Source: Odontocerum albicorne (lineage: Eukaryota; Arthropoda; Insecta; Trichoptera; Odontoceridae). Taken from it: 64,000 bases of DNA. Positions 2,400 to 59,427 of the stretch are shown here, in pieces. Position 1 is the stretch's first letter. The number at the start of each line of letters is the position of its first letter. Below the pieces are notes generated by a model. The model was not told the origin of the DNA and searched no databases. It saw only the letters and a list, made by a program, of their open reading frames with translations. The stretch lies in NCBI GenBank assembly GCA_949825065.1, contig OX463854.1, forward strand, positions 15,661,112 to 15,725,111, given 5' to 3'. The position numbers and the translations under genes were made by a program.

Positions 2400-5300
2400 A
2401 GGATCACTAATGTACATTTAAAACGGTTTGTTTTAACGGAAAATATGAAATATGACGTTTATAAAACTTGGTCCGACTAAAATATTATGTCTTCATCTGT
2501 CTTATCAACGCATTTTTAACTGAACACTGAATGTAAAAGTGCATTTTTTTTAATAATAATAATAATTTATTCGAGCAAGTGTAAAAGATTCTGCAATGCA
2601 ACATAAACTGTATGAAAAATACACAAGCAATAAAATAAAAGAGTACATGCATGTTATATGATTTTGAATATAAATAAAAAAAGCAATTGATGGTGTCTAA
2701 CGTACTCTATTCCTTACATAGAGTAAAACAGAGTTACTTCTCTGTTTTGGCTTAGAGTTCCAAATGCTTGTCAAAAAATCTTAGAATGAAACAATTATTT
2801 AAAAAATCAGGAACTCCAAATTTTTCATTCACGCTGAAGAAATGTGAATATTAGAGAATGCCATCCTTTGTTATGGATACCTGGAAACTATATTTTCATG
2901 GTTTAATTTTAAAATGGATAACTAATAAATCATGTTTTAAACAAAAGCTTTTAAGAATAATCTTCACTTTTGCACTGTTCAGTGTTAACTTGGAGGCTGC
3001 TAACCGTCTAGAATCGAATCGGAAGCTTAGAACGAAAAGTTTCGGATAACAATAGGTATTTGGATTCTGTATCGTATTCCATGTACGGGAGACACGAAGT
3101 CTCGTGTTTCTTATTTGAAGTCTCGCATTTTGTCATAAGGAATATCCAATTGATAAAGTAGAAAATATTAAATAATAGACAGATTTTAATATGATTTAAC
3201 GTCAAGTGTGGAGTGGCTAACAATCGGAATAAAAGGGAATTGAAAGTCGAAATAAGGTATTTTAGCTCTTTCTTGCATACACTTTATTGAAAAAAAAAAG
3301 TGCTAGCATAATTGCTCTTTGAAACACGAATTTATTTTTTGTTTTCATCGTATTTTTAAATAAAACAAGTTAAATAAGTAAAATAAGCTATTTATTGAAA
3401 GAAAAAGGCTTTGGAGGAATAAGATGTTTGATAATACTTACCACTCTGGTGCTGGGACATTAACAACGATAAAAATATTAAAACAATCTACATATAAATT
3501 TCACGATGAGATTAAACACGAAATGCAGGGGAACATTAATAATACATTATAACTTCGTCGAAACGATTTTCTCCTTTTCTTACAACTTCAATTTTATACC
3601 TGGGCTCATGAAAATTATATAACAGATGCACCGTTCGCTTATCTTTCCATTTCGTTTTCTGTATCGGCATTTCCTGTATCGCTAATCTTCCAATCATATT
3701 CACCTCTCATCAAATCCTTATATTTCTTTAGATGGCGCAAAAAATATATTTGTGTAGACTGTGACTTATGCACTTTCATATTTAGCAATCCTAATTGAAA
3801 ATCATAAGCTATTGAAAAATATGTCGAAGTGCGTATTAAAGTTTTTTTCTTCGAGTAGCTGAAATTTTTTTAACACCACCCAAGGTCCGAATTCGCTTAA
3901 TCTTTTTTGATTTCCTTATAAGTGTACGAGTATATTTGAAATTTCATATGATATCCACTGGATCCACTCTTATTCATGAGGTTTTAGGCATGTTTTGCTT
4001 TCGAATTTTATCATGCTTTTATATATGACAAGGATTGTTGTTGTGTATTTTTTCAATGCATTCTATAGTTGGTTGTGTTAAGGCCTTTCTTTTTACAACT
4101 TGTCATAATCAACAGGATTTCTCTCTTTGTCATCAATAAATTCAGGTGTAAATTACTGAGAAATCACCCAAACCTGTTAACAGCCATATTCTGAAATAAA
4201 TACGGATCATGAAGATCTGATGACAAATAACCCCGCTATATTGCTATGTAGGTTTATTTTTATTAGTAAATTGAGTTCTTGGAAGGTTTAATTTTTTTGT
4301 GTCGTAGCAGATTCATAAGGTTTCTTCTTTTGTCGTGTGCAAAGGTATGTTTGTGAAAACATGTTAGATAAATGCGTGCCAAAATAAAAAATAAAAAAAG
4401 AGGAATAGGACTTTTTAGACATATTGCGGAAGTTTTGTGTGATAACTAAAGGTACTCGTACCAGGTACTGCACAATGGAAAGTATCGGTAGATTTGTGTT
4501 TCAGCAGAGGTTGAGGCTCCAGGGGTTCCTAGGTTCAATAAACGTACATGGGGAACTTGTCTTGATTTTCATCATTTTCATTGTTATTATCACCTTCAAC
4601 ATCCAACGGCGGTAAATAATCAAGTGGTAAGTACGAGTAAAATGACATTATCTTCATCATGTGTTGAATCACAATTGCTTTTATTATCGGATGAAATGTT
4701 TTTATAGCAAAAATATTATCGATTTCATTGCAGAAAATGTTTTTATAAGCCATGAGAAATGTAAAGAATTAATTATAAATGTGTAAATCACATTTATGAG
4801 AATCAAATCACAATAGTTGATTTAATAACATCATATCACTAAGTAACATTGTTGAAACGCAGTATATAAAATACTCGTACATACGAATATATCTATTTTA
4901 TGGCGGAAACATACTAGATGCATGGTGGTAGTATTTACTAACCACCCTTAAATAGGTTGTAATGAAATATTTATACTATTCTTGTTTAATTTTGCACTTA
5001 TTAATCATAATCGTAGTACGAATTTATAATAATTAGCAAAAGTGATGTAATAAAAAATATCACACATATTCAATGTCTCAAATAAGGTCATGAGCAATCT
5101 TCAACACGCGTATAATTTTTTTTATGACATATAACACAAAAACATTGGTGATTTGAAAATCGTCTGTGGTTTTAGTTAAAAGTACCACAGAAAAAAAAAC
5201 TATTGTATTTTGTTTTCTTCTCAGTTCAACATTTAAAAATAGAAGGTAGTCATCAATACTAATCACCAATTTTCAAAGAGTTATAAATGTTATAAATGTT

Positions 5301-5600
5301 TATATAGTTTTGTTTTTGTTTATATAGTTATAAATGTTTATATAATTTTGTCTTTAACATTGAGCAGTTTAATTCCTAATGATTTTGAGACAATGCTATC
5401 TCCACAGTGACGACATATGGAATCCTTAAAATCCTACAAGATTTCTTATAATAAAATCCTCTTGTATTTATTTTCGAAAATCTTCATGTAAGAGACGGAA
5501 TAGATGTTTTCCTGGAGCTCTAATTTCACTGAAACTCGGTATTCATACATTGGATCAGTTTCAGATTTTGTATGTTTTGCTGTGACATCTAAACGACGTC
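2400..5600. other. AT-rich spacer, no gene seen
   Basis: No convincing coding region on either strand. Visible small features: a TTTTTTTTTAATAATAATAATAA tract near 2546-2570, which looks like the 3' tail of a minus-strand retroposon; three TACGAGTA/TACTCGTA octamers (3925, 4453, 4872); and a short tandem of TATAAATGTTTATATA near 5281-5345. Confidence 0.55.
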
Positions 5601-5632
5601 TTATAAAGTTGAAAATGTTCAGTGTACGATTA

Positions 5633-5762
5633 AACTTTCTAGCAAAAACGCTATGTTATTAACCCTTTACAAATTGAAATGTTGATATCGAAATAAAAAC
5701 TTTCTAGCAAAAACGCTATGTTATTAACCCTTTACAAATCGAAATATTGATATCGAAATAAA
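5633..5762. repeat. 65-bp tandem duplication
   Basis: Two direct copies (5633-5697 and 5698-5762) beginning AACTTTCTAGCAAAAACGC and ending GATATCGAAATAAA differ at only two or three bases, so this is a recent local duplication. It lies in non-coding AT-rich DNA. Confidence 0.9.
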
Positions 5763-5875
5763 AAAAATCAAATAAATCGAAACTGTGTTTTCTATATATT
5801 TTTTTAATGCAACTTAGCTATATATATTATTAAATTTATTATTAATTTGTACAATCGTGGTTTCATAATAAAACA

Positions 5876-6075
5876 CGATCACCTCCGTAACTTAATTGAT
5901 AACATGCCTGTCTTCTTACCTGGGGTTGCGGGTTCGATTCCCGCAGATGTCGAATTTATGTGTAAAGACCTCTTTAACACATATCTGACTGGTTGAGTTA
6001 GATCACCAAAAGAAACTAAACTCGCTAGGTTTTGCTGTGTGCAAATCAATAATACAACACAAATCGTCATGATGG
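5876..6075 (+). repeat. tRNA-derived SINE, copy 1
   Basis: The head has a degenerate pol III A box (CGTAACTTAATTGATAAC) and a perfect B box (GGTTCGATTCC near 5931). The body then follows the family pattern: a CTTTAACACAT..CTGACTGGTTG segment and the tail CTCGCTAGGTTTTGCTGTG. At least a dozen relatives sit in this window. The family is retroposed by a LINE partner and is not a functional tRNA, because the anticodon arm does not fold cleanly. Confidence 0.75.
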
Positions 6076-6275
6076 TTTGAATTATAGTGATGCACTTTTT
6101 AAATTTGTATAAATCGGCTTATAAAATGATTTTGCAAACCCGAAATCAATAATACTTAATATATTCCCGCTATTCTACTTCTGATATTTGGACAGATATC
6201 TAAATTATAACGACTCTACGATAACGTAGGACGATAAATCCAACAAGACTTGTTAAAAAACAAAAACCTCTAGAC

Positions 6276-6718: not shown

Positions 6719-6861
6719 CTCTAGACTTTTTCTAAAAATCGATACTCCTGGTCAGTAATGTTTATCATGTAAAAAAATACACGGAAAAATGACAAAAAGT
6801 GGGACATTGATATAAATTCTGTCAAAATGCATGCTGAACGATCCAATTGATGAAAATATTA

Positions 6862-8131: not shown

Positions 8132-8139
8132 TAATATAT

Positions 8140-9199: not shown

Positions 9200-10355
9200 A
9201 CAGTTTTTTTGTTTTCTCCTGATGAAGGGCGAATGGTCTTATATCCTCAGTTGATTTACACACGAAAGGTTCCTGACTTCATTTCAATATTACTAATTTC
9301 TCAGCCTTATTCATTTCATGCGTTTTTTTTCTTCGATTCTCATGTGTTTACTTTTAACTGATTATTTTGTTTATGTACTCGTAGTTTAAAAGTCATAAAA
9401 TGCTTTTTTTACCTGATCAACGTACTTCCATCATTTTAATATATGTCCGAAAACATACACTTACAGATAGTTTTTGTTTAAACTTATCTTGAATATATAA
9501 AACACAAAGACAATGAAATTCTAAATGCTTTCGATTTCTTTAATGCCTTTTGGCATTTCGTTAATACTTTGAAACCTTTGTAGTATAAGTTATTTTGATT
9601 TTTTTTTTCGTTTTGGAAATCGAAAAATCATCCCGACTTCTCGTGGGGTAATTATGGACCTTATTATTGTACATCACACGTTGTCAGATATGCAGTTTAA
9701 GACATTAATCATTTAATATTGTTTTACCGTACACTGTTTTACAAAGCATATCCTTAATTAGAGTGTATTTGCTTAATTTCAAAATACGAGTAGTTCTCAT
9801 CCCTTTATTCTGCACAATTTGAATTTTTCTCAGTTAAATATCATTACGCAGGAAAAAAAAACACTTGAACACTAATTTGTTATTGCAATAATATTTAAAT
9901 ATTTTCATTTTATATATCGCCGTTAAGACAGCGTTTTGTTGTGTAAAAATCACATTATACTCGTATATTTAACATTTGGCGAGATGTATTAGGTGTTAAC
10001 ATACGTTGTGCCCGTTTTTTTTTTCAATTTAAAAATGAGCACCAAAAGTAAAACAAAATGGTAAATGTTATACGTCATTCGAAATAAAATTTTCTGCTCT
10101 ACAAGATATTGTATTTGGTTTTACGTTACATATATTATTTTATTTGATTACAACCCTTCAAAATGGAATGTCAAGTAGACGAAAGTGAGCATTTTCGACA
10201 CCTTCTGTTCGCGTTCAATCGAGGGAATAAAGCTGCCAAAGCGGACAAAACTTATGTTAACACCCAACAGATTTAGGAAGATTATTTTTTAAACAATATT
10301 ATGGATGCATATTGAAAGCAATGAAATAGTTAGATCACAAATAATAATAACAATA
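9200..10355. other. AT-rich spacer, no gene seen
   Basis: Nothing with coding character. It contains three TACGAGTA-type octamers at 9376, 9785 and 9958. Confidence 0.55.
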
Positions 10356-10358
10356 ATA

Positions 10359-11636: not shown

Positions 11637-11964
11637 TAGTATAAGGACATTTTTCATAGCACCATTTAGAAAGCAAACTCTTCTCGAGGGTTTTCCAACT
11701 TGGTACTCGTACTTACTTTTATGGACAGAAAAAAAATACGACAAAATAAATAAATATATATAAGTTGAGTGTAAGGATAGGAAGGCGGTTGCTCTTGTCA
11801 CATATTATCTGCACAATTTCAGAAAAAAACATGTTTGGTGAGAAAACTGCAGAAAACTTACCAAGGGAGACAAAGTACAGAGAAACCTTTGTAGATCTTC
11901 TGGTATGTGTTTGACACACATTTGGCTTTACTCGTAGTCTAGTGTTTGTGTGTAATGTTCATAT

Positions 11965-12145
11965 TAAGTTTATTTATTTATTTTACACGTGACAAGAAAT
12001 AGACATACTATAATTTGCGAAAAAACAACAGATAATTTAATTTGGACACACAATTTTAATGAATCTGGGTTTGTTGCCTTTCATTTGTCGTGTCCCAAGT
12101 AAACTAGGATTTTTCCTGTATCTCACTGAGCACATACGAGTATAG
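11965..12145 (-). repeat. LINE 3'-end repeat B, copy 1
   Basis: The segment from the TTTATTTATTT tract to TATCTCACTGAG matches 46254-46425 almost base for base in long blocks (ATTTGCGAAAAAACAACAG, TTTTAATGAATCTGGGTTT). By analogy with the better-bounded second copy it is the 3' end of a minus-strand non-LTR retrotransposon. A TACGAGTA octamer at 12135 lies just beyond the last strongly shared stretch and is absent from the other copy. Confidence 0.7.
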
Positions 12146-12949: not shown

Positions 12950-13540
12950 GTGTGTATCTTGTTCTTCTTCAGTTATTACTTGATTGGCTTTTGTTTTATA
13001 AATACATAAACACCTCACACACTTTTACCATGAACAGTACAAATTTTGTTGAATGGGATACAATTTTATATCGAAAGATCTGTAATATTAAGACTTTTTT
13101 GTTGGTTTTCATTTTTGTTTATTGCATATTATGTACATACTCGTATGTATATGTATGGAAATGTGGAGAAGTTATTAAATACTGGCCACAACATATACGA
13201 GTACCTTGCTGTTTTGATACTTTTTTGAATGACTATTCACCCAAATCAGGGTATTCCCAGCCAGTGAACAATCTTGAATTGAATCCGTTCACCTCTTCAG
13301 TTTATTATTTTCCATTTTTTTGTCAATATCATAAATTTATGTAAATCTTATGTTCGGTTCACAATTGGGTAGAACCGTTGTTTAACTAAAGCGTCCATAA
13401 ATGTCGGTTGTAAATTTTTTTTATGAAGAATAGTAAAAATCGTTGAATCATAAAAAAAAACAAAAAAAATTGTTAGTTATTCAAAATTAACTGTTAAATA
13501 AATTACCAGATTAAAAAACAGGATAAACCCAGATTTGAAA
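12950..13540. other. AT-rich spacer, no gene seen
   Basis: The 130-codon plus-strand frame at 12952-13344 is rich in F, Y, I and L because the DNA is AT-rich, and it has no motif, so I do not call it. Two opposite-sense octamers lie 58 bp apart (TACTCGTA at 13138, TACGAGTA at 13196). Confidence 0.5.
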
Positions 13541-13665: not shown

Positions 13666-14180
13666 AATCGGTTTGTTGTGCATATTTTTGTATTCATCTT
13701 TAAAAAAGTACATTGTTAATATGTGCATGCCCTTGACTTGGGTTTGACTTCATTCTTTTCGGACTTAGTAGTTTAATTTTGACGGATACATCAAATACTG
13801 GATGTGTTACCTTTTAGTATTGTAAAATATTTTATTTCCTATCGCATATTGTCCATCAGCTGACAAAGTGGTTATATCCCGCTGATTAATCCCAATTCAT
13901 TAATATAATTTCATACTTCGTATCTCCACGGGAAATATGATACTTCAAACGTCCGTGTGGGAATATTGATCGTTCACTCGAACTGTCCAGTGTACCTCAC
14001 AATATACGAGTATAATGAGTATTATAAATTGCATTGTTAGTTCACTCAAATACCTATTTGTATGGGAATATCTGTTGAGCAGCTGAAATTTTGTTGGTGG
14101 TTTAATATAAATACATCACCATAATCATTTCAGATTGTACTACGTTTATTGCAGAACATAGGCCTCCCCCTTCTAAATCA

Positions 14181-14834: not shown

Positions 14835-15277
14835 AATCCGGAGAAGACGGTGGATGGGGCAGCAGTTCGTAGCCTGATTCTACCAATTTGGCCGTGGCGA
14901 CGGCGGAGGTGTGAGCCGGTGCGTTGTCATGATGGAAGAGCACTTTTTTCTTCGCCAAATGGGGCCGTTTTTTCTGCAATTCGGCGTCGAATCGGCCCAA
15001 TAATTCGGCATAGTAGGTCTCTGTGACCGTTTTGCCCTTCTCCAGGAAGTCTATGTAGATCACACCTTTTGAATCTCAGAAAACGGTGGCCATCACCTTT
15101 CCGGTCGATAGGACAGTCTTCGTCTTCTTCGGAGCACGTTCGCCGGGTGAAGTCCACTGTTTCGACTGTTCCTTGGTCTCGGGTGTGTACCAGTGTATCC
15201 ATGTATCCATACTCCTTTGCTCTTGCGATAGTGGTGCCATCGGGCGGTGAGGCTAAGTACTTATCGGACCGCCCTCG
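14824..15277 (-). mobile_element. mariner element 3, internally deleted and 3'-truncated
   Basis: The 5' end on the minus strand is intact: TA (15278-15279), then CGAGGGCGGTCCGATAAGTAC. The 3' end is lost at the fold-back near 14824. The ATG at 15240 gives MAPLSQEQRS and then jumps directly to MDTWIHWYTPETK, which normally lies about 150 residues further on, so the DNA-binding domain has been deleted. The rest is KVMATVF*DSKGVIYIDFLEKG (one TGG to TGA stop), KKKVLFHHDNAPAHT (second catalytic Asp) and HPPSSPDFG, where it breaks off before the third Asp. It is one of four mariners here whose ends start CGAGG. Confidence 0.85.
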
Positions 15278-17470: not shown

Positions 17471-18360
17471 AGACAATAACTATGATATGTGTATAAGACA
17501 AACTCATCACAAATACATTCAGAAATATAAACACCCACCCTCTCCTATAATGGTTCGTTTTTGCAGATAATTTTTGGTAAAGTTTGATCATTAACGCTGA
17601 TTGATCTTCCTTGACTAACATGGATGTTCCATGAAGCTTTATTCTTACATACATCGTCTTATATGATGCATGATATAAGTAACGACGACCTGAATTGTTA
17701 TGAACAACTAATAGACTTCTTCCATATTGTAGGCAGGCTGATGATATATAAGCATTCTTATTCAGTATGATTATTCCTTATTTTATTCGATGTGAGATAT
17801 GTTATCTTAAATGTAGGCGCCCTTGAAGTAATACTATGGTGTACAAAAAAAACGATAAATGTTGCTGTAAACAAGATTTGAACATTTTCCTTTTGCCCGT
17901 CTAGCACGCGTAAACGGTATCACTGTGCGTCGGTCTACGGTCAACATTAATGTTACTCTATTTGCCTATGTCACTTTAAGCCCTTTCTGTTTGTCAAGTC
18001 CAATGATTACGAATAAGAAACTTTGACGAGGGAAATGGAAGAAGCGGTCTCATGGAAAAATAAGAATCAAACATTTATTACCGTTTTTATTTCTGGATTT
18101 TTGTTTTGGTCGTACCCCAAAATTACTCACAATGACTATTGAAATTCTCTATTGAATATTAACTCAAATAAATATTTCACTTTGGCTTATTTTTATATTG
18201 AATTCGTAAGAAATATTATGGTCTAAGAAATATTTACGAGTATCTCTTGTTACTTGAGAATTTTTTTAATGTATTTTTATTTTCGTAGTGCTTGTTTTGT
18301 CAAATTGTTTTCGTCTAAAATTAGGTTTTTATATTTATTTCATAATATCTAATCAATGAT
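17470..18360. other. Spacer, no gene seen
   Basis: Nothing recognisable apart from one TACGAGTA octamer at 18235. The 66-codon minus-strand frame at 17454-17654 could be the decayed body of the adjacent Penelope-like element, but I see no diagnostic motif. Confidence 0.45.
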
Positions 18361-20599: not shown

Positions 20600-21870
20600 T
20601 ATTTTTCTATCACGATAAATTCGTCACTAAAAGTATATTTGAATTCTTAATTATAAGTTGTTAATTTATGAAGTGACCTTAATATTATTTAACGAGAAAA
20701 AAAAACTAGTTATGTGTTGACAAGCTTCGCTAAAATTTCAAAAATAATGAATTCAGGTTTTTCTCTGACATTTCCTCAATATTATGTTTTCCTTATGAGA
20801 TTAGCTATTCCATTAACATTTTGTCTCAAGTATATTTTGGTAATTTACCATATAATTTTGCATTCTCGTTGCCAATGCCCAAGTATTGATTTTTTCTTAG
20901 TAAGTCTTGTATTGATTGATTTCGATTTTTTTTTCTTTACTTTGTCCCTTTCTGTTCTACACATTAGTATTTCATGCATTATATTTTGAAAGATATAAGA
21001 ATATTGAATTGTTAGTTTTTTAGAATATTTTGATACGTTTAAATTGTAACTTTGATATGTACTTGTATATACACGTGTATACTCATATATACTAGTAAAT
21101 TACCCTTAAGTGTTGTTTATTTTGTTAATAAATAAATTAACAAAATAATTTTCAAAACATAATTTTAATCGCGTTAAAGCTTTTTCCAGAAACTCTTAAA
21201 TTAATTTCATCTCCGTAACATTTGTCTTTCCTAAGTTCCGTTTATAGTTTTATGATCTTCATTATATATAGCCGTTGTAGTTGAGGCGTTTTAAAAACAC
21301 TCTTGTTATTTTGATTCCAACACGCAATTTTATAACTTTGTGAACTTACGAGTACAACCGTTTAAAATGTTTTTGGTGTTGTTACCGTGTAAGTTTAAAT
21401 GAAAACCGAGGGTGATATTTGGTAATGTTTTTTGAAATGCCCTCGGGCTGAAAGATGCAACGTCTCATAACCTTTGCCATCATTAAAGATACCTCAATAT
21501 GATAACTTTGAAAAACATTTTAAACTGTTGGAAAACAGGCGTTAAAATCTTCGATCGTATCTTACGATTATAATATTTATAAAATTATATTATAAAAAAA
21601 CTTCGAAAGTGGATAAATAAATGCAGTTTTAATTGTAATTTCCACGGAAAACTGTCTTTAAAAAGGATCAGAAAAAAAATGAAAGCAGTGAAATAGTTTT
21701 TATTGTTTTAAAAACTTATGGTTTCTTAACCAAGACAATTATTTTTACGTTTGAATTAAGCTTCAATATTAAATTGTATTTATTTATTAGATACCAAATA
21801 ATTATTGTCTTTAGAGGATATGGAAAATTATTATCACAATTATTACAAAATCTGTTTAGTGAAGTCTCTC
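20600..21870. other. AT-rich spacer, no gene seen
   Basis: No coding or repeat structure recognised apart from one TACGAGTA octamer at 21347. Confidence 0.5.
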
Positions 21871-28324: not shown

Positions 28325-28625
28325 GTCGCCCCATGTATTATTCTAAGTGTACGCATTTCTACAGGACTATTAAATTCTTAGCATATTTTGATACCGGTTT
28401 TTTGAGAACGTTCAAGTATACTCGTAGATGTTTTAGTGTCCCGTTGACTTTGATTTCCCATTACTACACACTGTCTCAGACGTAACAAGGGATATCGTAA
28501 CTCTTTCAACCTCTGATAAAAAACAACTTAAATTGTGGATTTTTGGTCTAATTATCGAAATAAATGCATAATTATTCATTTTTTTCTTAAGAATATACTA
28601 TATTTGAATAATGTTATTTAATGAT
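28325..28625. other. Spacer, no gene seen
   Basis: Only a TACTCGTA octamer at 28419. Confidence 0.5.
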
Positions 28626-31505: not shown

Positions 31506-31699
31506 TATGCAACAGAATATGCACATCACAAATTGTCACACGTACTTCAGTTGCATCAAATATTGTACGAGTAAGCTTAACTCTATTTTGTATTATGCCT
31601 TTTACTATTCTTCTCATGGATATTGGATATTTATTCATGTTTTAAATAATAATTATTATCCACTTTCTAAGAAAATTGTATTGTATGTCAACGCTTTAC

Positions 31700-32220: not shown

Positions 32221-32352
32221 ATACGAGTATTACGGGGACCGGAAAGTTATCAAAATTTTGGGTCGTACATACCCTTTTACAGTTAGTTTGTCTCGAAAGT
32301 GAGAGTTGTGAATTTATTGTTTTGAATTATTTTATACCGTTATTTATAAACA

Positions 32353-32678: not shown

Positions 32679-33754
32679 CGAGGCGTATCCAGAAAGTAAG
32701 TGTACTGAGGCTCTCACGACCGGATGGATTTTATTTTCGACATGTTGGCTACACTTCCGTGTAGCCTGACCCTTCCCCTCCGCAACGAGACCGGTTCGAG
32801 GTAAGTACGTTGAGAAGTGTCGACGCGACAACACTTTTCGTGAAAAATGTCAACCCAATCTCCCGCCAAGTGCGAAATACGCGGCGTCATCCGTTATCTC
32901 GTTTGGAAGGGAAAACCTCCGGTTGAGGTTTATAATGAGGTGAAAACTGCATATGGTGATAAAGCTATGAATCGTACAAGTGTGTACAAGTGGTGTCGCG
33001 AGTTGAGGCCGGGCAAGAGATTTTGAGGCGCTGCAAACTCCATGGAGATGAATTTCTCCGCTCCATCGTTACTGGAGATGAAAATTGGGTTGCACACTAC
33101 ACGCCTGAAACCAAAAGGCAGTCTCAACAGTGGCGTCACACCTCTTCACCCTCCGCCAAAAAGTTCAAAACCACAATTTCAGCCAAGAAAATCATGGCAT
33201 CCGTGTTTTGGGACTGTCAAGGCATAATTTTAATTGAATATATGCCTCAAGGGGAGACCATCAATTCTGCAAGATACTGTGAGACCCTTAAAAAATTGCG
33301 GAGGGCGATTCAGAACAAGAGGAGACGCATGCTGACAAAGGGAGTCTGCCTGCTGCACGACAATGCCAGACCACACACGGCCAACGTCACGAAGGAACTG
33401 CTCGCCTCGTGTAAATGGGATGTCCTGAACCATCCCGCGCATTCCCCTGACCTAGCACCTTCAGATTACTATCTCTTTACCTCCCTGAAGCTGCACATGG
33501 GTGGAAAAAGGTTTTCAACCGACGAGGAGGTAAAGGAGGAGGTGGAGAAGTGGACGGAGGGGTTGGCGGGAAACTACTTCGAGGAAGGCATAAAAAAGTT
33601 GATACCCCGCTTCACCACCTGCATTGAGAGGAATGCCGACTATGTCGAAAAATAGCTTACATATGTACTACGGTAACCGCGTAATTTTTTTGTTTAAATA
33701 AAAGAAATTGTAACCTACAAAAAATCAGTACACTTACTTTCTGGATATGCCTCG
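32679..33754 (+). mobile_element. mariner element 7, nested in element 6
   Basis: A 1076-bp element with ends CGAGGCGTATCCAGAAAGTAA on the left and, inverted on the right, CGAGGCATATCCAGAAAGTAA. Flanked on both sides by TATA, of which TA is the expected target duplication. Removing the element together with one TATA restores the reading frame of the host transposase at HCI-SKINK. About 200 bp of the gene's middle are deleted, so the copy is short for a mariner. Confidence 0.9.
32847..33655 (+). pseudogene. mariner transposase with internal deletion (element 7)
   Basis: ATG 32847 gives MSTQSPAKCEIRGVIRYLVW followed by VYKWCRELRPGK, the first HTH. The sequence then jumps into the linker before the catalytic domain, so the second HTH is gone, and the frame shifts. 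From 32990 to 33655 it is fully open: EFLRSIVTGDENW (first Asp), SVFWDCQGIILIEYM, CLLHDNARPHT (second Asp) and HSPDLAPSDYYLF (third Asp, exactly 34 residues between the second and third), ending NADYVEK. The catalytic domain looks intact; DNA binding is not possible. Confidence 0.9.
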
Positions 33755-34789: not shown

Positions 34790-35165
34790 TAAAAGTATTT
34801 TAGTACTATCTTTGATGTATAGGAGTGAAACGTGAACATGGAAAAATACTGAAAAGAGTTAAATAAATGCTGTAGAAATGCGTGCATACTCGTAGGGTGC
34901 TAATGTAATATAAAATACGGAATGAAGTGATTAGGAATGAATGTAAACTATAGAGTAAGATGAAGTAGAGTACTCTGAAATGGTTTGGTCACGTGGAACG
35001 AATAAATATAAGTAGAAAACGTGGTAGAGGAAAATCAAAATAAGTATTATTGGATCAAGCAAGATGATTTTTTGAAAGAAGAATAAGTGAAAAGTTAAAT
35101 AAATTGTAAGGGCTGTATGAGGATGTGGAAGAGGTGAAATGTTTACTGGAAAAGGAAGCCAAAAT
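34790..35165 (+). pseudogene. LINE ORF2 C-terminal tail, remnant
   Basis: Reads MYRSETWTWKNTEKS, then INAVEM, then WFGHVERINISRKRGRGKSK, LLDQAR, ILERRISEKLN and LYEDVEEVKCLLEKE, with stops and shifts. ETWT...E(M)...WFGHVER...GRGR.K is the conserved order at the end of many insect LINE reverse transcriptases. The segment at 12690-12900 is a second copy of the same part. Confidence 0.7.
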
Positions 35166-35199: not shown

Positions 35200-35740
35200 C
35201 GGTTAATTATTAAGGATTTGAATCAGGGTGAAACTGTATCAACGATGATATTATGTTATTTTAGCCCCTCTTGCTCGATATCGGTCCCCGCAATTGCACC
35301 AGCCTCTAAGAGCAGCGTACGTTAGATAGCGGACGGTGGTCGCCGCTGCGGTCAATATTTGCTTGACGTACGTGACGGCAGTTTTGATGGCTTCATACGC
35401 ATCATTGCAGATTAATTATCACTTCGCAAATGAATGTTGCCTGATGTCATAACTGAGCAGCAGAAAAATGGCATTCAATAATCTACGTTTTTTTTTCATT
35501 CCGTCATGAAGCTTAATCGAAAACATTTGCCGCGAAATGCCGATGATTAAAATCGGTAAATTTGTTGAAACATTGTGTCCGAAATTTTTATCATAAATAA
35601 ACAAAGGTAAATACCACAATCAAGCCGGAGCACTTGAAAAAATCTTTGATGAACTAGTTTAGTACAATTGATTATGTATCTGATACTCGTACAAAAAATA
35701 AATGATTTGTTACGTGATCAAAGATGTCTTGAGGTTTTCA
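35200..35740. other. Spacer with small GC-richer patch
   Basis: About 35265-35400 is GC-richer (CTCGATATCGGTCCCCGC, GTTAGATAGCGGACGGTGG). No open frame or family was recognised. Confidence 0.4.
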
Positions 35741-38869: not shown

Positions 38870-39470
38870 ACATATAACCCTGCGTTTAACTGTCAAGTTA
38901 AATTAAAAAACAAGCGCTGCTAAGATACTTGTAAACGAAATAGCGCTTTACAAGTTGTCCATTTATTATTTTGAAAAATTCAATAATTTTAAGGGAATAA
39001 TCCATGGGTACATACTCGTAGACATGATGTTATATTCCGTACATTTTATATTTTTGGTACCTTAATTTTTTATTGTTTGATTTCCATTAAAAATGTATGA
39101 TATAATATTGTGCTCGATATTGATTTAATTAAATTGATTATAATATAAATGTCAAAGAGCATGTTCTTAAAATGACTTGTCAAATGACACGCATTTGCGA
39201 CTGTTTAAAATGTAAGAGTTTCTATTATTTTTTTAATTTTATCTATCGCTTTATTGATCCATCTTAGAAATTACGATATTTTGTAAAATTTTGTTATTTC
39301 CACAAGCTCCAAACTAGTTTTCTCTTTCCTGTAATTGATATCGTTATATAACATATCATCATTCGCCACGATATATATTACTTCTTGTGAAGTATATTTT
39401 TTAGTTTTTTTTTTCTAAAACATGTGTTCAAACACTAACTAGCAAAATACTCATTTAAGGTAACTTATAC
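38870..39470. other. AT-rich spacer, no gene seen
   Basis: One TACTCGTA octamer at 39013. Nothing else. Confidence 0.5.
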
Positions 39471-39849: not shown

Positions 39850-40700
39850 TACGCTTTCAATCGCTTCTCGGTGTTTACCTTGAGGGTTTATGTCTCCAAT
39901 CTAAGTAACATTACAAAGTGTGTACATAGCACTTGATCTTTGTCGAAGTTTTACTTTTATTAAGAGATTGTAATCAATCTGTATAAAACTATATTGACCT
40001 TAGATTATTTAGAAAACAATAATTTCCTAAGTAGGTTGTAAATGCCACGAAAAGAAAATAGTTTTTTATCATGCGTATTTTTTAAGTTGCCGATTTAAAT
40101 TGACAAAAACCTCTTCTTTGAAGTCGCTTTAGCTAATATGATATAATTTTGGCTCGGTACGACGATATTTGCAATGATCCTTTGAACTAGAGTGTAACTC
40201 GCAGATACACGAATAACAGATGAGCTATTGTAAATAATATTTTTATTATTATTCTTTAATTTGTTTCAGGGCAGCTTTGGAAAAAAAATATTCGTTAAAG
40301 GCTTCAAACGTGCCGAGGAATAAGTTATTCTGGCATAATGTAATATTTTAAGAATTAATTAAAACATTCCGCATATTTTGAGAGGAAACTCCTGTATTTA
40401 TTTGGTTGGGGCTTTATCAAAATAATAATTGTTTCTTTATTTCATAAATTCAAATCAATTCCATGTTACTTTCCTTTTTTATGGTTATTTTTTGTATTTG
40501 TCTATTGGCGTTTGCTTACAAGATTTTTATTAAATTATATTTCCGGACTGAAAATGAATGATAATGAACGAACATTTTATTTAATTTTTTATGTTTTTAA
40601 ACAAATTTTGAAAATATATTTCTTCATTTAGATTTTGATTATTTTTAATATATCCAAATGAACAATAACGTATGTTATACTCGTATGTTGGCTGAAAAAT
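39850..40700. other. AT-rich spacer, no gene seen
   Basis: One TACTCGTA octamer at 40678. Confidence 0.5.
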
Positions 40701-42440: not shown

Positions 42441-42609
42441 TGTTTATCCGGCAGTTAAAAATTTATTATTGTTACTGAGAGAATCCAAGCAGTATCAAAT
42501 TGGTAATCTTTATTTGTAAAGAGAGTTTTGTAATGTACGAGTAGTATTGAACAATCCAAGCTGTTGTCCTCATTATCTGCGTGAAAAAAACAATTTCTTT
42601 CTAAGCAAG

Positions 42610-42780: not shown

Positions 42781-43261
42781 CAATTTGTGGTGTTCATGAC
42801 GGAACTGTAATACAATATTAAACGGGAAGAATAAATACCTCTGTGTAGTGTACAATCTGTTTTTTTTTTGTTCTTGCACACCACTGTAGCTTACTTTGGA
42901 AGTGGAATTTGGATCAGAAATTTTAGATAATCTCTTTAATTTAGGAAGAAACAAGCATAACTTGACCTGAAATCAGCTAGGAAAAAAAATCGAAACAAGG
43001 AAAGTGTTTCCGAGCTCATTTTATGTCGCCAAGTCAAAGCTACATGTTTGAATAAGGATTCAAAAAATATCTGAGAACAATTTTAACAGTTACACAGAAA
43101 ATATGGATCAATTAAGCTCGTAGCGAAACACTGACGTGGTTAACTTTTTGTATAGATATTAACCTTGAATATAAGAAACACACTCCTGTATTTCAATGTT
43201 GTGTACAATATTCATTGACTCGTCTTCTAAACTAAAGCAAAACAAGGATATTTAATTTATG

Positions 43262-43460
43262 TGCAATTATCATTTGAAGTAATTTCATGTATAAGTCAGA
43301 TAAGTAAGTGCAATTATCGTTTGAAGTAATTTCATGGTATAGGTCAGATACGAGTAAGTAAGTGCAATTATCATTTGAAGTAATTCATTCTATAAGTCAG
43401 ATAAGTAAGTGCAATTATCATTTGAAATAATTTCATGGTATAAGTCAGATAAGTAAGTGA
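43262..43460. repeat. ~47-bp tandem repeat, four units
   Basis: Four units share GTGCAATTATCATTTGAAGT, AATTTCATGGTATAAGTCAG and ATAAGTAA. Units 1, 3 and 4 have GATAAGTAA where unit 2 has GATACGAGTAAGTAA (octamer at 43349), an exact TA duplication around CGAG. Confidence 0.9.
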
Positions 43461-44395: not shown

Positions 44396-44796
44396 ATAAA
44401 GTTTATGTTTCTTTAGTTTTTTCTTTAAATATCGATATGAATAAAGTTTCATCATCTAAATAATTCAAGATGATCGTTCCAAAATTACTACAGGCCAAGT
44501 AAACCGTTGGGGATTGCCACCTGGTAATAAATCCCTCAAATTATTATGCAATGAAATGTTTAATAAATAGACCACCAAATATGTGCTGTGCAACATGTGA
44601 TGCGTTGGTATCAAAAGATTCTATCGTCGCCAGGTCGAATGGACAGTCCATGCTTAGTTTTTTCTTCTGGAGTTGTTTCATTTTGATTCCAGTATTTTTG
44701 TTCGGAGCTGGTTAAAGTAGCATGATGATCGCCAACCTCCGGAGAGGAGAGTAATTTTAAAGAAGATATCAATACATACTCATTATATTACTCGTA

Positions 44797-47897: not shown

Positions 47898-48818
47898 CGA
47901 GGGTCATTCAGAAAGTAAGGTTACAACATTTATGTAGGATCGAAAAATGCTTGTATTTAATTGAAATTCACAGGATACTTTACAAATATATTAAACTACT
48001 TTTCAACGTAATCGCCGTCGAGATCGATACATTTCTGTAGTCGGGGCACCAACTTTTGTATGCCAGTGTCATAGACCTCCGCCGCCAGCTCTTTCAGCCA
48101 CTTCTTCACAGCTTCCTCGACCTCCTGATCGTTGGAAAATTGTCGGGGTGTAGTGACACACCCACGTCTCATCCTTTGCGATAGAGTCCAGAAAAACTCT
48201 CTCATGTGCAAAACGATCCAAAAATTCACGCGCGGCGGTCACGCGATTTAGACGGTGCTCCGGTGTGAGCATTCTGGGCACCCATCTCGCACACAACCTC
48301 TTGTAACCAAGTTTTTCCGACACAATATCAACAAGGAGACTTCGAGAAATGTCAGGAAATTCTTCGTGAAGGTCGTCAAGTGTCACACGGCGGTCATTTC
48401 GTACTTGTTCTTCAATTTTTCGCACAAGTTCGTCAGAAATCACTGCCTTGCCTCGCCGTCAGTATCAGTACGGCCTTCTCTGAACAGCCTAACCCACTTC
48501 GTGACATGTTGTCGACTCATCACATCACTACCATAAACTTCCACGAGCTTCCGATAAATATTCGCGGCGGTATTGTTCTGCAAAGTCAAAAAACGGATGA
48601 CTGCGCGGATCTCGCACGGACGAGAGGTGGCGGGAGCGTGCGACGACCTCTCCATCGGAAGAATTTACTGTGACTGAACAAAATGGCCGACAAACACGCG
48701 GGATCAAACAAATTGACCGTTAGGATCCCCCCTATACGCCAGGTGCGCCAACTTCGAAACAAAAAAAAATCCCCTGGCCTCAAGAGCCCTTGTTATCTTA
48801 GTTTCTGGATGACCCTCG
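47898..48818 (-). mobile_element. mariner element 8, internally deleted
   Basis: A 921-bp element at TA (47896-47897 and 48819-48820), ends CGAGGGTCATTCAGAAAGTAA on the left and, inverted on the right, CGAGGGTCATCCAGAAACTAA. Its coding DNA is GC-rich relative to the flanks. It lacks the middle of the catalytic domain. Confidence 0.9.
47996..48655 (-). pseudogene. mariner transposase lacking its catalytic core (element 8)
   Basis: Minus strand start at 48655: MERSSHAPATSRPCEIRAVI, HTH1 VYGSDVMSRQHVTKWVRLFR, then a shift near 48443 into ISDELVRKIEEQVRNDRRVT, HTH2 SRSLLVDIVSEKLGYKR, WVPRMLTP and AKDETWVCHYTP with the first catalytic Asp. From there it jumps directly to QFSNDQEVEEAVKKWLKELA and the C terminus GDYVEK. 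The whole stretch with the second and third Asp is missing, so DNA binding could survive but catalysis could not. Such products can in principle act as inhibitors of related transposases; that is speculation here. Confidence 0.9.
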
Positions 48819-50359: not shown

Positions 50360-52680
50360 AACAAATTTATTTATGGTTTTCTGAAAGTTGAAAATATCTC
50401 ATTTACTTTTTTATATTGACCATAATTCCACAGTGGGTTGCGGGATGTGGATGATACGGAGTTTTTGTGTAGTTTTTTTTTTCGAAAGTACGAGTATATG
50501 CGAGAAAAATTTTCGCAAACAAAACTGAAGGATGAGCTATCTTAAAAGTTCCCCATAAATCTCGAAGTCGTTGGGTGAATTTTCTAATACTGTTAAAATA
50601 GTATATTACTATACAATAGTCATAGAAAACTCTGGTTTAGCCACGGCTTCAGGTCGGAACTAGTTTAGCTACGGCTTCGAAGGATGTGAAGTGTCAAACT
50701 ATGGACTAGCTTGGATGAAGGCGTTTTATAGCATCACTGTGATTTTGATGGAACATGTTTGATGATTTTCAAGTAAAAAAAAAATAATAAGTACGTTTGA
50801 TCGTTCGTATGACACGACGTATATTTTTAAACCCAAACCAGTTAAATCGCTCGATGAAACTCATTTCCATCACCACTGAACAGGCTTAATGAACACAACT
50901 CGTTGTATGGTATGATGTGGAACATTACAGTTACTGTTGGGCTATTCTCTTATTCTCCACGTTATACAGCAAGTATGCACATTTTCTATATTTGGTTCGT
51001 ACGCGGTCCTATGTCACCCATACCTTTTTTCAGGAGATCAAATGCCAGCATTCGCTCTATTGGGTCTACAATAAGTTTTCCTCTATATGGTCGAATTAAG
51101 ACCCATGCTTGACTCTACTTCATTATTATACCAAATTTTGATGATTGTTAGGTAGCTGAAGTCATGAAAATTTCCGAAACCGCTAAAGCATCGGAGGAAC
51201 ATCATATTTTTTTTGGAACAGTAGATCGTTTTCCAAACACTTTCTTGTGATAATTATAAAAAATGAACTATTAAATAACGTCATATACAAATACATTTCA
51301 TCAATAAATTATTCATGTATTGTAACATATTTGTAATACACGGGCGAAAAGGAAATTTTAAAGAATTGTGTCAAATGGATATTCGTTTTACTTTATTACT
51401 GTGTATGTGCTTCACCATAAATCGGTGCTAAATAGTACACATTGTTAAATTTTATTATCTTTTTATATTATATTTATTAGCCAGTATTCGAAAAGTTTAT
51501 CGTTTTTTTTCGTATGTCACCCAGTAGAATCCCTTCCCCCCTTTTTTTAAATCTCTTCCAATTCTAAAAAGTTTATGATGGACAAAACGTTTATTCAAAG
51601 TCAGTTTTCAAGGAAGCGATTATTGCACTTCTGCGTCATCAAAGACGGGAAGAGTTACTGCAGATCTCCTATCGATTCAAATTACCCAGATTGAGCTACG
51701 GATTAGCTCTGTCTGCAGAAGCCGCTTGCTTTATTTTTACTCTGCCTCCTTTTCTCCCTTCACCGGATTTGTTCCTTCCTCTTTTTGCTTCCATTATCCT
51801 AATGTTCATTTGGATATCGACACAACAATTTTGAACGATTGCATTTCTACTAATTACTTGCAAATCCGTTTGATGCTTGATGTGTTTTATCGTTATTGTT
51901 TTTTTACGGTTTTATTATGCCGTTTGAAATATTAAATCCTCTCTGCTGAAAAGCGTTTACGTTTAGTCGCTAGAATTATTTTTTTATTTTTGTTTTCAAA
52001 GAAAACTTGTAATGTTTTTGTTATTATGGTTTTTATCTATATTTGTGTGTTAAATTCTTTTGTGGCTGTTTTTACTTTATATTTTATAAAACACAATTAT
52101 TGATTTTTGCGCATTTAAGTCTGTACTTGTTATACTCGTATAATTTTTCGTTCTTCATTTTAGGTATTTTTATTGTCCTCTTTATGACTGAATATTTTTA
52201 TCAATTGCTCAGAACTTTCCTTCTAATATTCTCAAGCCTTTGCGTTTACGTGCCAAGAACTTCTTTGATTTGGTATCTCCACTATTAATGAGCAACCTTT
52301 TCCTCTCCTTAGCACAATTCCTAGGACAATAAATTATTCCATATTTTCAGAACCTCTTCTCATTCTATATCTAAAAAAATTCAAGGTGCGTATTGAACAG
52401 TCAACAGTCTTTAATATTATGTTCCTGTTGTATATACAAACTTGTTCTCTATTTAACTTTTGTCGCCCGAAACAATATTTACCATCACTTGTTTCATTCA
52501 TTCATATAGTTTACTTAACTTGAGTGACAATAAAGCCAGTATACAGTGTAGTATCTGTCCCCGTTAATCAAAACTTGGAGCTTAGATCCACTTAAACATA
52601 CTCGCGTTACTTGCTCTCCGTCGTCGTACGAGTTTGTTTTACTACAGCTCGTTTGAAAGGCGAAACAATTTCAGACTTTT
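50360..52680. other. AT-rich spacer, no gene seen
   Basis: Octamers at 50489 and 52133. A near-duplicate pair GGTTTAGCCACGGCTTC / AGTTTAGCTACGGCTTCG occurs near 50634-50680. The open frames at 50903-51112 and 52043-52288 are not supported by any motif. Confidence 0.5.
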
Positions 52681-56653: not shown

Positions 56654-56694
56654 CTAGTATATAGACGTATACTAGTACTAGTACTAGTACTAGT
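56654..56694. repeat. Palindromic ACTAGT hexamer run
   Basis: TATACTAGTACTAGTACTAG followed by TACTAGT: four overlapping copies of the self-complementary ACTAGT, preceded by GTACTAGTATATAGACG. The whole run can fold on itself. Confidence 0.8.
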
Positions 56695-56949: not shown

Positions 56950-57880
56950 TCTGTATAAAATTTCAAATATATCAACGCTTCTGAAGCGATGATGTATATA
57001 TTACACATGTTATAATGTAAATCTTATGTCCTATGCACGCCCTATCTTTTGCATTTAAATTTAAGATCATCGTGAACCATTGCCTTTTTTCTGGTATATT
57101 TAACTATCTAATAAATTAAATTCTGATTCATGTCTTTTTCGCAAAAATAATAATCTTTTGAGCTGAGGCGACTTCAAGTCCTAACATATGTCATATGTAC
57201 ACCGTAATATGATCCTTTTGAAATATTTTTTTATGGACCATTAGCTATAATTATCTTGCTCTATTTTATTTCCAGCTTTAAGTTAAACAAGTGAAACCCG
57301 AAATTATCGCTTTCAGCGCACCCGGGTTCCTCTGCCACTCGTCCACGCAAATATCTGTTCCACTCACTTGTACTCGTACTCCAAATCTTAGTTTACATTA
57401 TTTTATAATGAAATTATTTTCCAGCTCAATGACATATTCCCACAGTATGCGCCTCTCCCACCTGATAAAAAATATATCACATATTTTTGTCATTTCGTTT
57501 TAATTTTGTTTTACAAAAACTAACATATTGACCTCGCATATTCTTCAATTTTTTTACTCGTTTCCATTTTTTTTTCATAACTTTAATTAAGACCGTTTCA
57601 AGGTGGTCAAATATGTTTTTTTTATTCAAGGTAGGGGTAATTTACATCATTGAAATTATTTTAACATATTTTGGAATTATTTCGGTTTTGTTATAGTTTT
57701 TCCATTGAGCTGTATTTAAAGATACTGGAATAAGTTACTATTGAAACTATGGTGACATTTAATACAGTGGTGAGCAGAAGAAGTGTAATGTAGATTGCCT
57801 ACAGATAGGGAATAAATACATAATAGTATCAATTTGGATAAATGAGCCCATATTTTTTTAAATATGATTCCAGTCTGGTT
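56950..57880. other. AT-rich spacer, no gene seen
   Basis: One TACTCGTA octamer at 57371. The open frame at 57291-57503 has no motif. Confidence 0.5.
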
Positions 57881-57889
57881 AAAACTTAG

Positions 57890-57965
57890 GACCTATAAAA
57901 ACATATTTCTGGTTAGTTGGAAGAGATTGCCACGTGGCAAACTCGCCAGGTTTAAAAAAACAATA
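57890..57965 (+). repeat. SINE body fragment
   Basis: ATTTCTGGTTAGTTGGAAGA, GATTGCCACGTGGCAAACTC, GCCAGGTTT match the family body. Head and final tail are missing. Confidence 0.65.
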
Positions 57966-58179
57966 CTAAATTGTTAATTGCTTTTCTTATCATTGTTAGT
58001 CAACAAATAGTCAAAAATGATTACAATATCGAACAGCCTCCTGAGTTGTCCATATTCTAAAAACCGAAATCTCTCAGACTTTAAATTATCCTCAAGGTGT
58101 GTTTTTCTTTAAAGTTTTAAAGTATATTTGATCAATTTTGACTAGCTCTAAATCTATAAATTTCTAATAGCATTTTGAT

Positions 58180-58450
58180 ATTATAACCCACATGTCTGTC
58201 GACGTGTTGGGATGCTGTTTTCATGACCAAATCTTGGCTTCGATTACCCAGTGTGGGGGCGCGGAGTTCTCTCCGCGCAGAGTATATACTCCGACAGCCG
58301 CTCATCAAAATGCAAATGGAATTATTAGGGGTGCAAAGCCTGACGTTGTTACCACCGGAGCGGCGTGCGTGCATGCTCGCTTATGGACTCATGGACCTGA
58401 TATCGTACTTTGCGCCTTTAGCTATAGAGCAGCTTATTGGTGTCGTTTGG
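58180..58450. promoter_or_regulatory. GC-rich unique island with hairpin and POU octamer
   Basis: Includes a perfect 8-bp inverted repeat GCGCGGAG-TTCT-CTCCGCGC (58259-58278), ATGCAAAT (58310-58317, POU octamer) and GGAATTATTAGGGG. Two overlapping plus-strand frames (58192-58500 and 58223-58492) and one minus-strand frame are open but lack any motif. Candidate regulatory island; a short exon cannot be excluded. Confidence 0.3.
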
Positions 58451-58459
58451 TTTTACATC

Positions 58460-59230
58460 ATTCCTTATTGGTGCATAGTAATAAAACGTTAAATAGATGA
58501 TTTATAATATGAAACGATTTAAAATAAGTTGTGTTGTAAAAAACCCGTAAATTTTAACGTTTTGTAAATATTTTGAGGTGATCAAGCCGTTGAGCGAGAC
58601 TTCGCGAAACGGTTAGTAAAATATACTTTGGTTAGCAAATAAAGAAGAATATATACAAATAAAGAAGTTCTCAAATAAAGAAGATTATAGTAATTTGTCA
58701 CTAGGAAAACTTTAGCCGACACTATAGATTTAAGAAATTGACAACATTGTATCCGTATGGCGTAATTTTTTTTACAGGTGGATATAAAAATACAATTAAG
58801 TCCAAATGTTGATAAAATAGAGAAACCAATGTAATAAATAATAAGACAATGTAATAAATAATATACACAGATTAGCAGAGCAAAATAGAAAGGGACACTT
58901 AGCTAAAATTAAATATAAGTAATTTGATCAACTTTCAAATTTCTGAAAATTGTAAACATTTTAAATATGGATAAACAAATAAATTACACTACTTTTTTTA
59001 GACAAGAGTGATTTTCAAATAAATATTAGAGTATGCGACAATACAACAATAAATATCACATGAAAAAATCTTGAAAGTAAAACAAGTCCGGACGAATTAC
59101 TTACCTCGTTCATAATCCTGGATGTTAAGCATTTGCAATGTTCGTTAGGTTACGGCACCGGCACCGGTACCAAGTTCTTTTGGTTTAGAAAATAGGTAAA
59201 TCTTTATTTATTTCATCACAAAACCTCACA
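58460..59230. other. AT-rich spacer, no gene seen
   Basis: AAATAAAGAAG occurs three times near 58637-58684. Otherwise nothing; the LINE 3' end follows. Confidence 0.5.
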
Positions 59231-59427
59231 ATATACTCGTATATTTATTTATTTATTTATTTTTTCAAAACAGGCTTAGCCCAATTACATTGAAAAATAC
59301 AAGACATTAAAAAAGAAGAAAAATACAGGGAATTTTTTTTTTTTAAATTATATAAAATAAAAAATAATGCATATGTATACAAACGAGTATTTACACACAA
59401 ACGTATGTTACATATATATTCAGTCAC

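What the first reader, a model, noticed from the sequence alone, without database searches (positions are those of the whole stretch)
3925..59241. The octamer TACGAGTA/TACTCGTA is about tenfold over-represented and looks like Minos-type excision scars
By reading every line I find 28 exact copies: TACGAGTA at 3925, 9785, 12135, 13196, 14005, 18235, 21347, 31566, 32222, 42536, 43349, 50489; TACTCGTA at 4453, 4872, 9376, 9958, 11704, 11929, 13138, 28419, 34887, 35684, 39013, 40678, 44789, 52133, 57371, 59234. At about one-third GC, independent bases would give only 2-3 on both strands (hand estimate). The two forms are TA-CGAG-TA and its complement. Minos, a Tc1-like transposon whose ends begin CGAG, duplicates TA on insertion and leaves the four terminal bases plus the second TA when it excises, producing exactly this octamer. 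Mariners leave 3 bases; the corresponding TACGATA/TATCGTA does not look enriched by eye (about 5-6 seen, about 15 expected). The window may therefore hold a fossil record of massive Minos-like excision with no donor left. If general, counting this octamer genome-wide would measure past transposition.
Basis: partly seen in the sequence, partly recalled or inferred. Interest (0 to 1): 0.85.

Follow-up and report, generated by a model that had tools for sequence, protein, structure and literature searches.

The report
Genome full of mariner excision scars
An eight-letter DNA word that is strongly over-represented in this insect-like genome is most likely the small scar left when cut-and-paste transposons jump out, so its copies look like a countable record of past jumps.

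Summary
It arises by insertion: paralogous repeat copies lack exactly six bases at the octamer (W:43349, L021:739, L014:6493, L021:1303, L023:4546), and CGAGTA is the commonest 6-nt insertion in a census of paralogs. Flanks show a palindromic target preference (ATRTAYAT). 'Excision scars' is well supported. 'No donor left' is wrong and 'Minos' is not supported: the window holds two TA-flanked mariner remnants with CGAGG ends (32679-33754, 47898-48818), and no Minos-like end was seen in 254 kb. The oddity is scar size: passages I read give animal mariners two to three retained bases, and the three-base scar TACGATA is not enriched (163,859 vs 165,820). Best reading: young CGAG-ended mariners that cut four bases inside, leaving about 0.35 million scars. 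The donor assignment is inferred; the genome-wide donor search did not complete, so a Minos-like donor elsewhere is not excluded.

The parts
3925..3932 (+). scar octamer TACGAGTA
   Evidence: exact match
4453..4460 (-). scar octamer (TACTCGTA on +)
   Evidence: exact match
   Evidence: exact match
4872..4879 (-). scar octamer
   Evidence: exact match
9376..9383 (-). scar octamer
   Evidence: exact match
9785..9792 (+). scar octamer
   Evidence: exact match
9958..9965 (-). scar octamer
   Evidence: exact match
11704..11711 (-). scar octamer
   Evidence: exact match
11929..11936 (-). scar octamer
   Evidence: exact match
12135..12142 (+). scar octamer at the edge of a repeat shared with 46301-46424
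   Evidence: similarity ends at the octamer, so uninformative on the empty state
13138..13145 (-). scar octamer
   Evidence: exact match
13196..13203 (+). scar octamer
   Evidence: exact match
14005..14012 (+). scar octamer
   Evidence: exact match
18235..18242 (+). scar octamer
   Evidence: exact match
21347..21354 (+). scar octamer
   Evidence: exact match
28419..28426 (-). scar octamer
   Evidence: exact match
31566..31573 (+). scar octamer
   Evidence: exact match
32222..32229 (+). scar octamer
   Evidence: exact match
34887..34894 (-). scar octamer
   Evidence: exact match
35684..35691 (-). scar octamer
   Evidence: exact match
39013..39020 (-). scar octamer
   Evidence: exact match
40678..40685 (-). 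scar octamer
   Evidence: exact match
42536..42543 (+). scar octamer
   Evidence: exact match
43349..43356 (+). scar octamer in unit 2 of a four-unit tandem array; the other three units have plain TA here (exact 6-nt insertion)
   Evidence: read by eye, 3 of 3 units; 2 of 2 alignments
43261..43458 (.). tandem array (about 47-nt units) giving the empty-site comparison
44789..44796 (-). scar octamer in a diverged repeat; empty state ambiguous
50489..50496 (+). scar octamer
   Evidence: exact match
52133..52140 (-). scar octamer
   Evidence: exact match
57371..57378 (-). scar octamer
   Evidence: exact match
59234..59241 (-). scar octamer
   Evidence: exact match
32679..33754 (+). donor-type element: mariner, 1076 bp, TA on both sides, inverted ends CGAGGCGTATCCAGAAAGTAAGTGTA (25/26), transposase fragment lacking its N-terminal part
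47898..48818 (-). donor-type element: mariner remnant, 921 bp, TA on both sides, inverted ends CGAGGGTCATTCAGAAAGTAAGGTTA (22/26); pieces of a mariner transposase on the - strand, most of the catalytic part missing
   Evidence: HTH_48; 56% identity over 103 residues to P0121
29534..29569 (+). single TA-CGAGGGTTGCTACTTAAATTTTGAGACAG end, like the vertumnana-group mariner end listed for Rhodnius (Rpmar10); partner end not found
15242..15277 (-). single TA-CGAGGGCGGTCCGATAAGTA mariner-like end (compare Dnomar3.1); partner not found

Best explanation
TACGAGTA/TACTCGTA is the excision scar of TA-inserting cut-and-paste elements with CGAG ends, most likely the young mariners with CGAGG ends that are still in the genome. 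An element inserts at a TA (preferring ATRTAYAT) and duplicates it. On excision the transposase cuts exactly at the 3' ends of the element and four bases inside its 5' ends, so each flank keeps a 3' overhang CGAG. The two overhangs can pair at their outer C and G; the two middle mismatches are resolved towards one strand, giving TA-CGAG-TA or TA-CTCG-TA. Shown: the enrichment, the TA-to-TACGAGTA insertion state at a handful of sites, the target preference, the presence of TA-flanked CGAG-ended mariners, the lack of enrichment of three-base scars. Inferred: that these mariners (rather than an unseen element) made the scars, the four-base stagger, and the pairing and repair steps.
For: 29 vs 1.2-2.4 expected in the window; 381,502 vs 30,151 genome-wide. 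Paralogs without the six bases: W:43349 in 3 of 3 other array units, L021:739 8 copies (6 with exact TA), L023:4546 2, L014:6493 1, L021:1303/1485 1. That is 5 clean events against one contrary site and one weak one; of 440 control TANNNNTA sites with a clean paralog 7 were scored empty (Fisher 3e-8, or 1e-7 with the weak site counted against). Among 30 six-nt insertions between paralogs 5 are CGAGTA (next class 2); of 6 TA-duplicating ones with four inner bases 5 are CGAG (these sites overlap with those above). Palindromic flank preference in 86 deduplicated sites, strongest three bases out (p 2.6e-11), RTAY 45 of 86 vs 31% background. Only the four-base step of the ladder is clearly enriched: 88 vs 5.0-6.5. 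TA-flanked elements with a CGAG end in 254 kb: W:32679, W:47898, L027:4375, L023:48 (mariner by sequence) and L025:4955 (mariner-like by its end only). Copies of the 32679 family are 91-97% identical, in line with scars that have few one-mismatch relatives (158 seen, 148.4 expected; d about 0.015, upper bound about 0.05).
Against: The scar keeps no letter that tells a mariner from a Tc1/Minos donor. Animal mariners and relatives are described as cutting 2-3 bases inside (passages). Hsmar2, a human mariner whose ends are also marked CGAGGG, gave variable, non-canonical footprints in HeLa cells and bacteria rather than a clean four-base scar, with a regenerated transposase that its authors think not fully functional (PMC3770610, passages). 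Scars outnumber visible CGAG elements about 82 to 5 in 254 kb, a high ratio. In the single-alignment test only 2 of 11 octamer sites with a spanning paralog were scored empty (4 of 401 controls); some of the others were gap-placement cases resolved. L028:3539 has paralogs with eight other letters, not an empty TA; L016:9610 is a weak match, 19/23.
Confidence: 0.7

Rival explanations
1. The scars are from a Minos-like Tc1 (DD34E) element or its miniature relatives with CGAG ends, now rare or absent from the regions looked at; the CGAG mariners in the window are bystanders with the same terminal letters.
For: Minos is said to leave a 6-bp footprint (PMC10992017, passage), the size seen here; mariners are described as leaving 2-3 bases, and one CGAG-ended mariner tested, Hsmar2, left irregular footprints.
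Against: No Minos-like end among 11 TACGAGC sites in 254 kb and no TIR pair of that kind. The scars look young, so donors should still be findable. The genome-wide donor search could not be run (and repeats unanswered), and 254 kb is a small part of the genome.
Confidence: 0.22
2. TACGAGTA is a functional motif, such as a binding site, kept or spread by selection.
For: It is exact, near-palindromic, present in 17 of 19 random pieces, and one-mismatch forms are not clearly in excess.
Against: It arises by a clean 6-nt insertion at TA in repeats and in one unit of a tandem array; flanks show a transposase-type target palindrome; Poisson-like spacing. A binding site made by point mutation would not show empty TA sites.
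Confidence: 0.02
3. The excess is mostly satellite or dispersed-repeat amplification of a few octamers.
For: The start of contig C1 has octamers at fixed 45-, 50- and 67-nt steps.
Against: 86 of 88 octamers in window plus sample have distinct flanks; octamers in 17 of 19 random pieces. The sample is 254 kb; the genome-wide share of arrays was not measured.
Confidence: 0.04

Closest known systems
Minos (Tc1-like) excision footprint
   Different: Elements with CGAG ends in this genome sample are mariner-type with CGAGG and short inverted repeats; no Minos-like end seen in 254 kb
CGAG-ended mariners of Hemiptera: Macrosiphinimar of aphids (Apismar1.1/Mpmar1.1, end CGAGGCGTGTCCAGAAAGTAAGTGTACT) and Rhodnius Rpmar33, Rpmar16, Rpmar10
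   Same: Window element 32679-33754 has nearly the same end; its transposase part is 80-81% identical to Uroleucon and Cacopsylla proteins
   Different: The word 'footprint' does not occur in the main text of those two papers; here scars outnumber elements
Hsmar2, a human mariner with CGAGGG in its ends
   Same: Same terminal letters, mariner transposase (PMC3770610, passages)
   Different: Its regenerated transposase left variable, non-canonical footprints; here one four-base form dominates
Mos1, Hsmar1, Himar1, Sleeping Beauty and Frog Prince footprints
   Same: Terminal bases plus TA remain after excision (Table 1 of PMC3878927 for four of them; PMC9632168 for Mos1)
   Different: Described as two to three bases; here four, and no three-base CGA form is enriched
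Plant mariners Osmar5 and Ppmar2
   Same: Up to four bases can be left (PMC9632168, passages)
   Different: Theirs vary from one to four; here one length dominates

Membership tests
Tc1/mariner excision scar (general) | Insertion of terminal bases plus one TA at a TA that is empty in relatives | tested here: met
   Paralogous sites: 5 clean events, 1 weak, 1 contrary; insertion census. Paralogs, not orthologs
Tc1/mariner excision scar (general) | Palindromic TA target preference | tested here: met
   86 sites, p 2.6e-11 at the third base out; likeness to the Tc1 target is recalled
mariner (DD34D) as donor | TA-flanked elements with CGAG ends present and young | tested here: met
mariner (DD34D) as donor | Mariner transposase with DD34D catalytic triad | tested here: met
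   32679 element: D163, D257, D292 invariant in the alignment with relatives, 34 residues between the last two. The 47898 element has mariner HTH and N-terminal catalytic parts only; L025 pieces gave no Pfam match
mariner (DD34D) as donor | Footprint of two to three bases as described for animal mariners | tested here: not met
   TACGATA 163,859 vs 165,820 control genome-wide; 31 vs 34-40 expected in 254 kb. Hence 'mariner-made' is argued from the donors present, not from footprint size
mariner (DD34D) as donor | Direct sight of an excision allele of a named copy | not testable with these tools
   One assembly only; no second individual or species
Minos | Six-bp footprint TA-CGAG-TA | tested here: met
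Minos | Element with CGAGCCCC-type ends (recalled) and about 255-bp inverted repeats | tested here: inconclusive
   None in 254 kb; genome-wide not searched
Minos | DD34E transposase in the genome | not tested
   No family search of the genome was run; the genome search stopped answering

The most novel reading that the evidence does not exclude
Insect mariners with CGAG ends cut four bases inside, not three, and their CGAG overhangs pair at both outer bases, so repair gives one uniform scar. The octamer then works as a genome-wide odometer of cut-and-paste jumps: about 0.35 million recent excisions are readable in this one assembly, many times more than surviving copies, and the same count could be made in other genomes with CGAG mariners, such as Rhodnius and aphids.
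Probability: 0.53. Interest if true: 0.75.

Novelty: new variant of a known kind. Interest (0 to 1): 0.62.

Why it matters
Cut-and-paste transposons usually leave little sign once they have gone, so their past traffic is guessed from surviving copies. Here the scar is long enough and rare enough by chance (about 12 of 13 octamers are in excess of the reversed-word control) to be counted directly. That gives an excision number, a rough age and a target preference from a single assembly, and suggests that excisions far outnumber surviving copies. If the mariner assignment holds, it also adds an animal mariner group with a four-base stagger.

Tried and rejected
Minos as donor: looked for Minos-type ends and for TA-flanked inverted-repeat pairs in 254 kb; the pairs with CGAG ends were mariner-type. 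Miniature elements with CGAG ends: a relaxed pair search gave the two window mariners and one poor pair (W:52629/55360, 12 of 16). Three-base scars: not enriched. Double fill-in TACGAGCTCGTA: 0; TACGCGTA: 0 in the window. Repeats at 12135 and 44789 were uninformative on the empty state. IMG/VR: a pattern scan gave two contigs; in the 1.5 kb read around each match I saw no second element end; a protein scan confirmed nothing. Genome-wide footprint spectrum inside a high-copy repeat, genome-wide donor counts and TACTAGTA counts: not answered (and repeats). Literature, held library only: TACGAGTA occurs in 301 papers, 20 listed, mostly unrelated by title; no paper holds both 'mariner' and TACGAGTA; in a search with footprint, transposase, excision and Minos none of the 20 listed of 26 held the octamer; 'genome-wide', 'excision footprints', 'transposon' and 'scars' together gave none. 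Papers were seen as listings and as passages found by term; none was read whole.


Full report
What was checked. With the octamers masked out of the background, Markov orders 0-5 predict 1.2-2.4. Among TA-X-TA words of other lengths in the window nothing is comparable apart from (TA)n, words that contain the octamer, and a TACTAG microsatellite.

Genome-wide. The window lies at G000:C22:15661112-15725111 of a 1,287,057,991-base assembly in 1241 contigs. The octamer occurs 381,502 times there, against 30,151 for the same word read backwards: 12.7-fold, an excess of about 351,000. In 190 kb taken from 14 other chromosome-size contigs there are 59, with 3.8-5.0 expected for orders 1-3, in 17 of 19 pieces; eight 8-mers score higher there but occur in only 2-7 pieces each. 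In the combined 254 kb TAGGTATA and TACCTATA are also in excess, and I did not follow them up. Of 88 octamers in window plus sample, 86 have distinct flanks, so tandem amplification, seen at the start of contig C1, is a minor part in the sample; its genome-wide share was not measured. Named relatives of the window's reverse transcriptase and mariner proteins include Lepidoptera, a psyllid, an aphid, a plant bug, ants and arachnids, so I infer an insect.

It is an insertion at TA. In the tandem array 43261-43458 three units read CAGATAAGTAAGTG and one reads CAGATACGAGTAAGTAAGTG. In a test with joined flanks, 7 of 88 octamer sites had a clean ungapped paralog: without the six bases at L021:739 (8 copies; one search shows exact TA in 6 of 8 alignments, TG in one, three letters in one), L023:4546 (2), L014:6493 (1), L021:1303 and 1485 (one event inside a tandem repeat, one unit empty, the two filled units matching each other), a weak one at L016:9610 (19/23), and a contrary one at L028:3539 whose two paralogs have eight other letters. 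W:43349 was dropped by the self-match filter and is taken. Together: 5 clean events, 1 weak, 1 contrary. Of 1652 control TANNNNTA sites, 440 had a clean paralog and 7 were scored empty only; most of these have AT-rich junctions, and one (L029:8024, TACACATA) may be a true TA-duplicating insertion. Fisher 3e-8 or 1e-7. The control tally required no filled paralog, a slightly stricter rule than I used for L021:1303. A cruder single-alignment test gave 2 of 11 octamer sites against 4 of 401 controls with a paralog, from 1200 sampled. A census of small insertions between paralogs in 254 kb listed 30 six-nt insertion sites (one, L014, listed twice under two gap placements); CGAGTA in its rotations was commonest with 5, the next class had 2. 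These 5 overlap with the sites above and two of them are the L021 tandem pair, so they are not an independent count.

Target site. The bases outside the scar are symmetric: outward from TA, A or G with T depleted to 0.49 of expectation, then T, then A at 1.69 times expectation (p 2.6e-11), that is ATRTAYAT; RTAY in 45 of 86 sites against 31% of all TA. In the window alone the trend is present but weaker. This resembles the Tc1 target preference as I recall it.

Size of the scar. In 254 kb: TACGTA 48 (46-61 expected), TACGATA 31 (34-40), TACGAGTA 88 (5.0-6.5), TACGAGGTA 4 (1.0-1.4), TACGAGGGTA 0. Genome-wide TACGATA is 163,859 against 165,820. So four bases remain, not three. The mixed-repair word TACTAGTA is slightly high, 9 against 2.7-3.9, partly from a TACTAG microsatellite at 56670-56694, and TACGCGTA is not (2 against about 2).

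Donors. The window has two elements with TA on both sides and CGAGG ends: 32679-33754 (1076 bp, ends 25/26 identical) and 47898-48818 (921 bp, 22/26). The first matches Pfam Transposase_1, has intact 354-residue relatives up to 94% identical (P0121), and an end nearly identical to aphid Apismar1.1/Mpmar1.1 and Rhodnius Rpmar33 (passages of PMC5490172 and PMC4678618). The second has a Mos1-type HTH piece and a piece 56% identical to P0121 over 103 residues on the minus strand, most of the catalytic part missing. The sample adds L027:4375-5333 and L023:48-974, copies of the first family, and L025:4955-6217, mariner-like by its end only (three pieces gave no Pfam match), each with one intact CGAG end, and some single mariner-like ends. 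Copies of the 32679 family are 91-97% identical. Of 111 non-octamer TACGAG sites in 254 kb about 45 are one satellite in L024 by my count of the listing; 11 continue with C and none reads CGAGCCCC.

Age. One-mismatch forms total 158 against 148.4 expected while the octamer is 88 against about 5-6; in the window alone 41 against 39.0. That puts the mean divergence of scars near 0.015, at most about 0.05, in line with the divergence of the mariner copies. It is a rough figure from a small excess.

Mechanism. Tc1/mariner transposases cut at the 3' ends and a few bases inside the 5' ends; the passages I saw say two to three (PMC2170065; [quoted passage not shown] Minos leaves six bp in all (PMC10992017). 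Hsmar2, a human mariner with CGAGGG in its ends, left variable footprints in HeLa cells and bacteria (PMC3770610), which does not help the mariner reading, though its authors doubt that the regenerated enzyme is fully functional. A four-base cut on CGAG ends leaves CGAG overhangs whose outer C and G can pair, which would favour clean joining; this is an inference from the letters. That the CGAG mariners made the scars is likewise inferred from their presence, youth, TA flanks and the lack of another candidate in 254 kb; a Minos-like family elsewhere in the genome is not excluded because the genome search stopped answering.

Verdict. Minos as the source is not supported by what was seen, and donor-type elements are present. 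The finding is a new variant of a known kind: known chemistry, with an unusual four-base size if mariners did it, and an unusually large readable record.

Noticed in passing
L011 about 9215-9422 and L021 about 4702-4800: Two tandem arrays each hold units with a TA-duplicating 5-nt insertion giving TACAATA/TATTGTA; that word is 147 vs 103 expected in 254 kb. It could be a three-base scar of mariners with TTG ends, in contrast to the four-base CGAG scar.
   Followed up: partly
window and L011-L029: TACTAGTA is 9 against 2.7-3.9 expected, possibly a mixed mismatch-repair product of the CGAG overhangs; part of the window count is a TACTAG microsatellite at 56670-56694.
   Followed up: partly
window and L011-L029: TAGGTATA (78 vs 11.6), TACCTATA (61 vs 11.6) and several 8-mers such as CCTACATC are in strong excess in the sample, the latter in few pieces, so probably satellites.
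   Followed up: no
6859-8134: 1276-bp TA-flanked element with 24/24 identical inverted ends TTAGGTGTACCGGAAAAGAATGTC, so a young non-CGAG element that looks mariner-like by its ends.
   Followed up: no
10356-11639: Mariner with GGTTAGTCAATAAGTTTTGAAAGC-type ends and a 289-residue open transposase frame 10514-11383.
   Followed up: no
25200-25946: PIF1-type helicase fragment (Helitron-like) next to a 481-nt tandem array 25944-27347.
   Followed up: no
59428-61275: 615-residue reverse transcriptase frame of a LINE-like element; the closest relatives listed are mostly unnamed assemblies, the named ones Lepidoptera.
   Followed up: partly
1912-2369: 54-nt tandem repeat (8.5 copies) open on both strands, encoding repetitive peptides.
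   Followed up: no
38135-38832, also L011, L014, L018, L019: Repeat with AACACTGTTTATTCCAC and TATAACCCTACCGGTTTCAAGGCTTTCA found repeatedly as fold-back pairs.
   Followed up: no
L024 222-2056: Satellite with steps of 39-43 nt carrying TACGAGGGATATCGAACAGC; it inflates TACGAGG counts.
   Followed up: no
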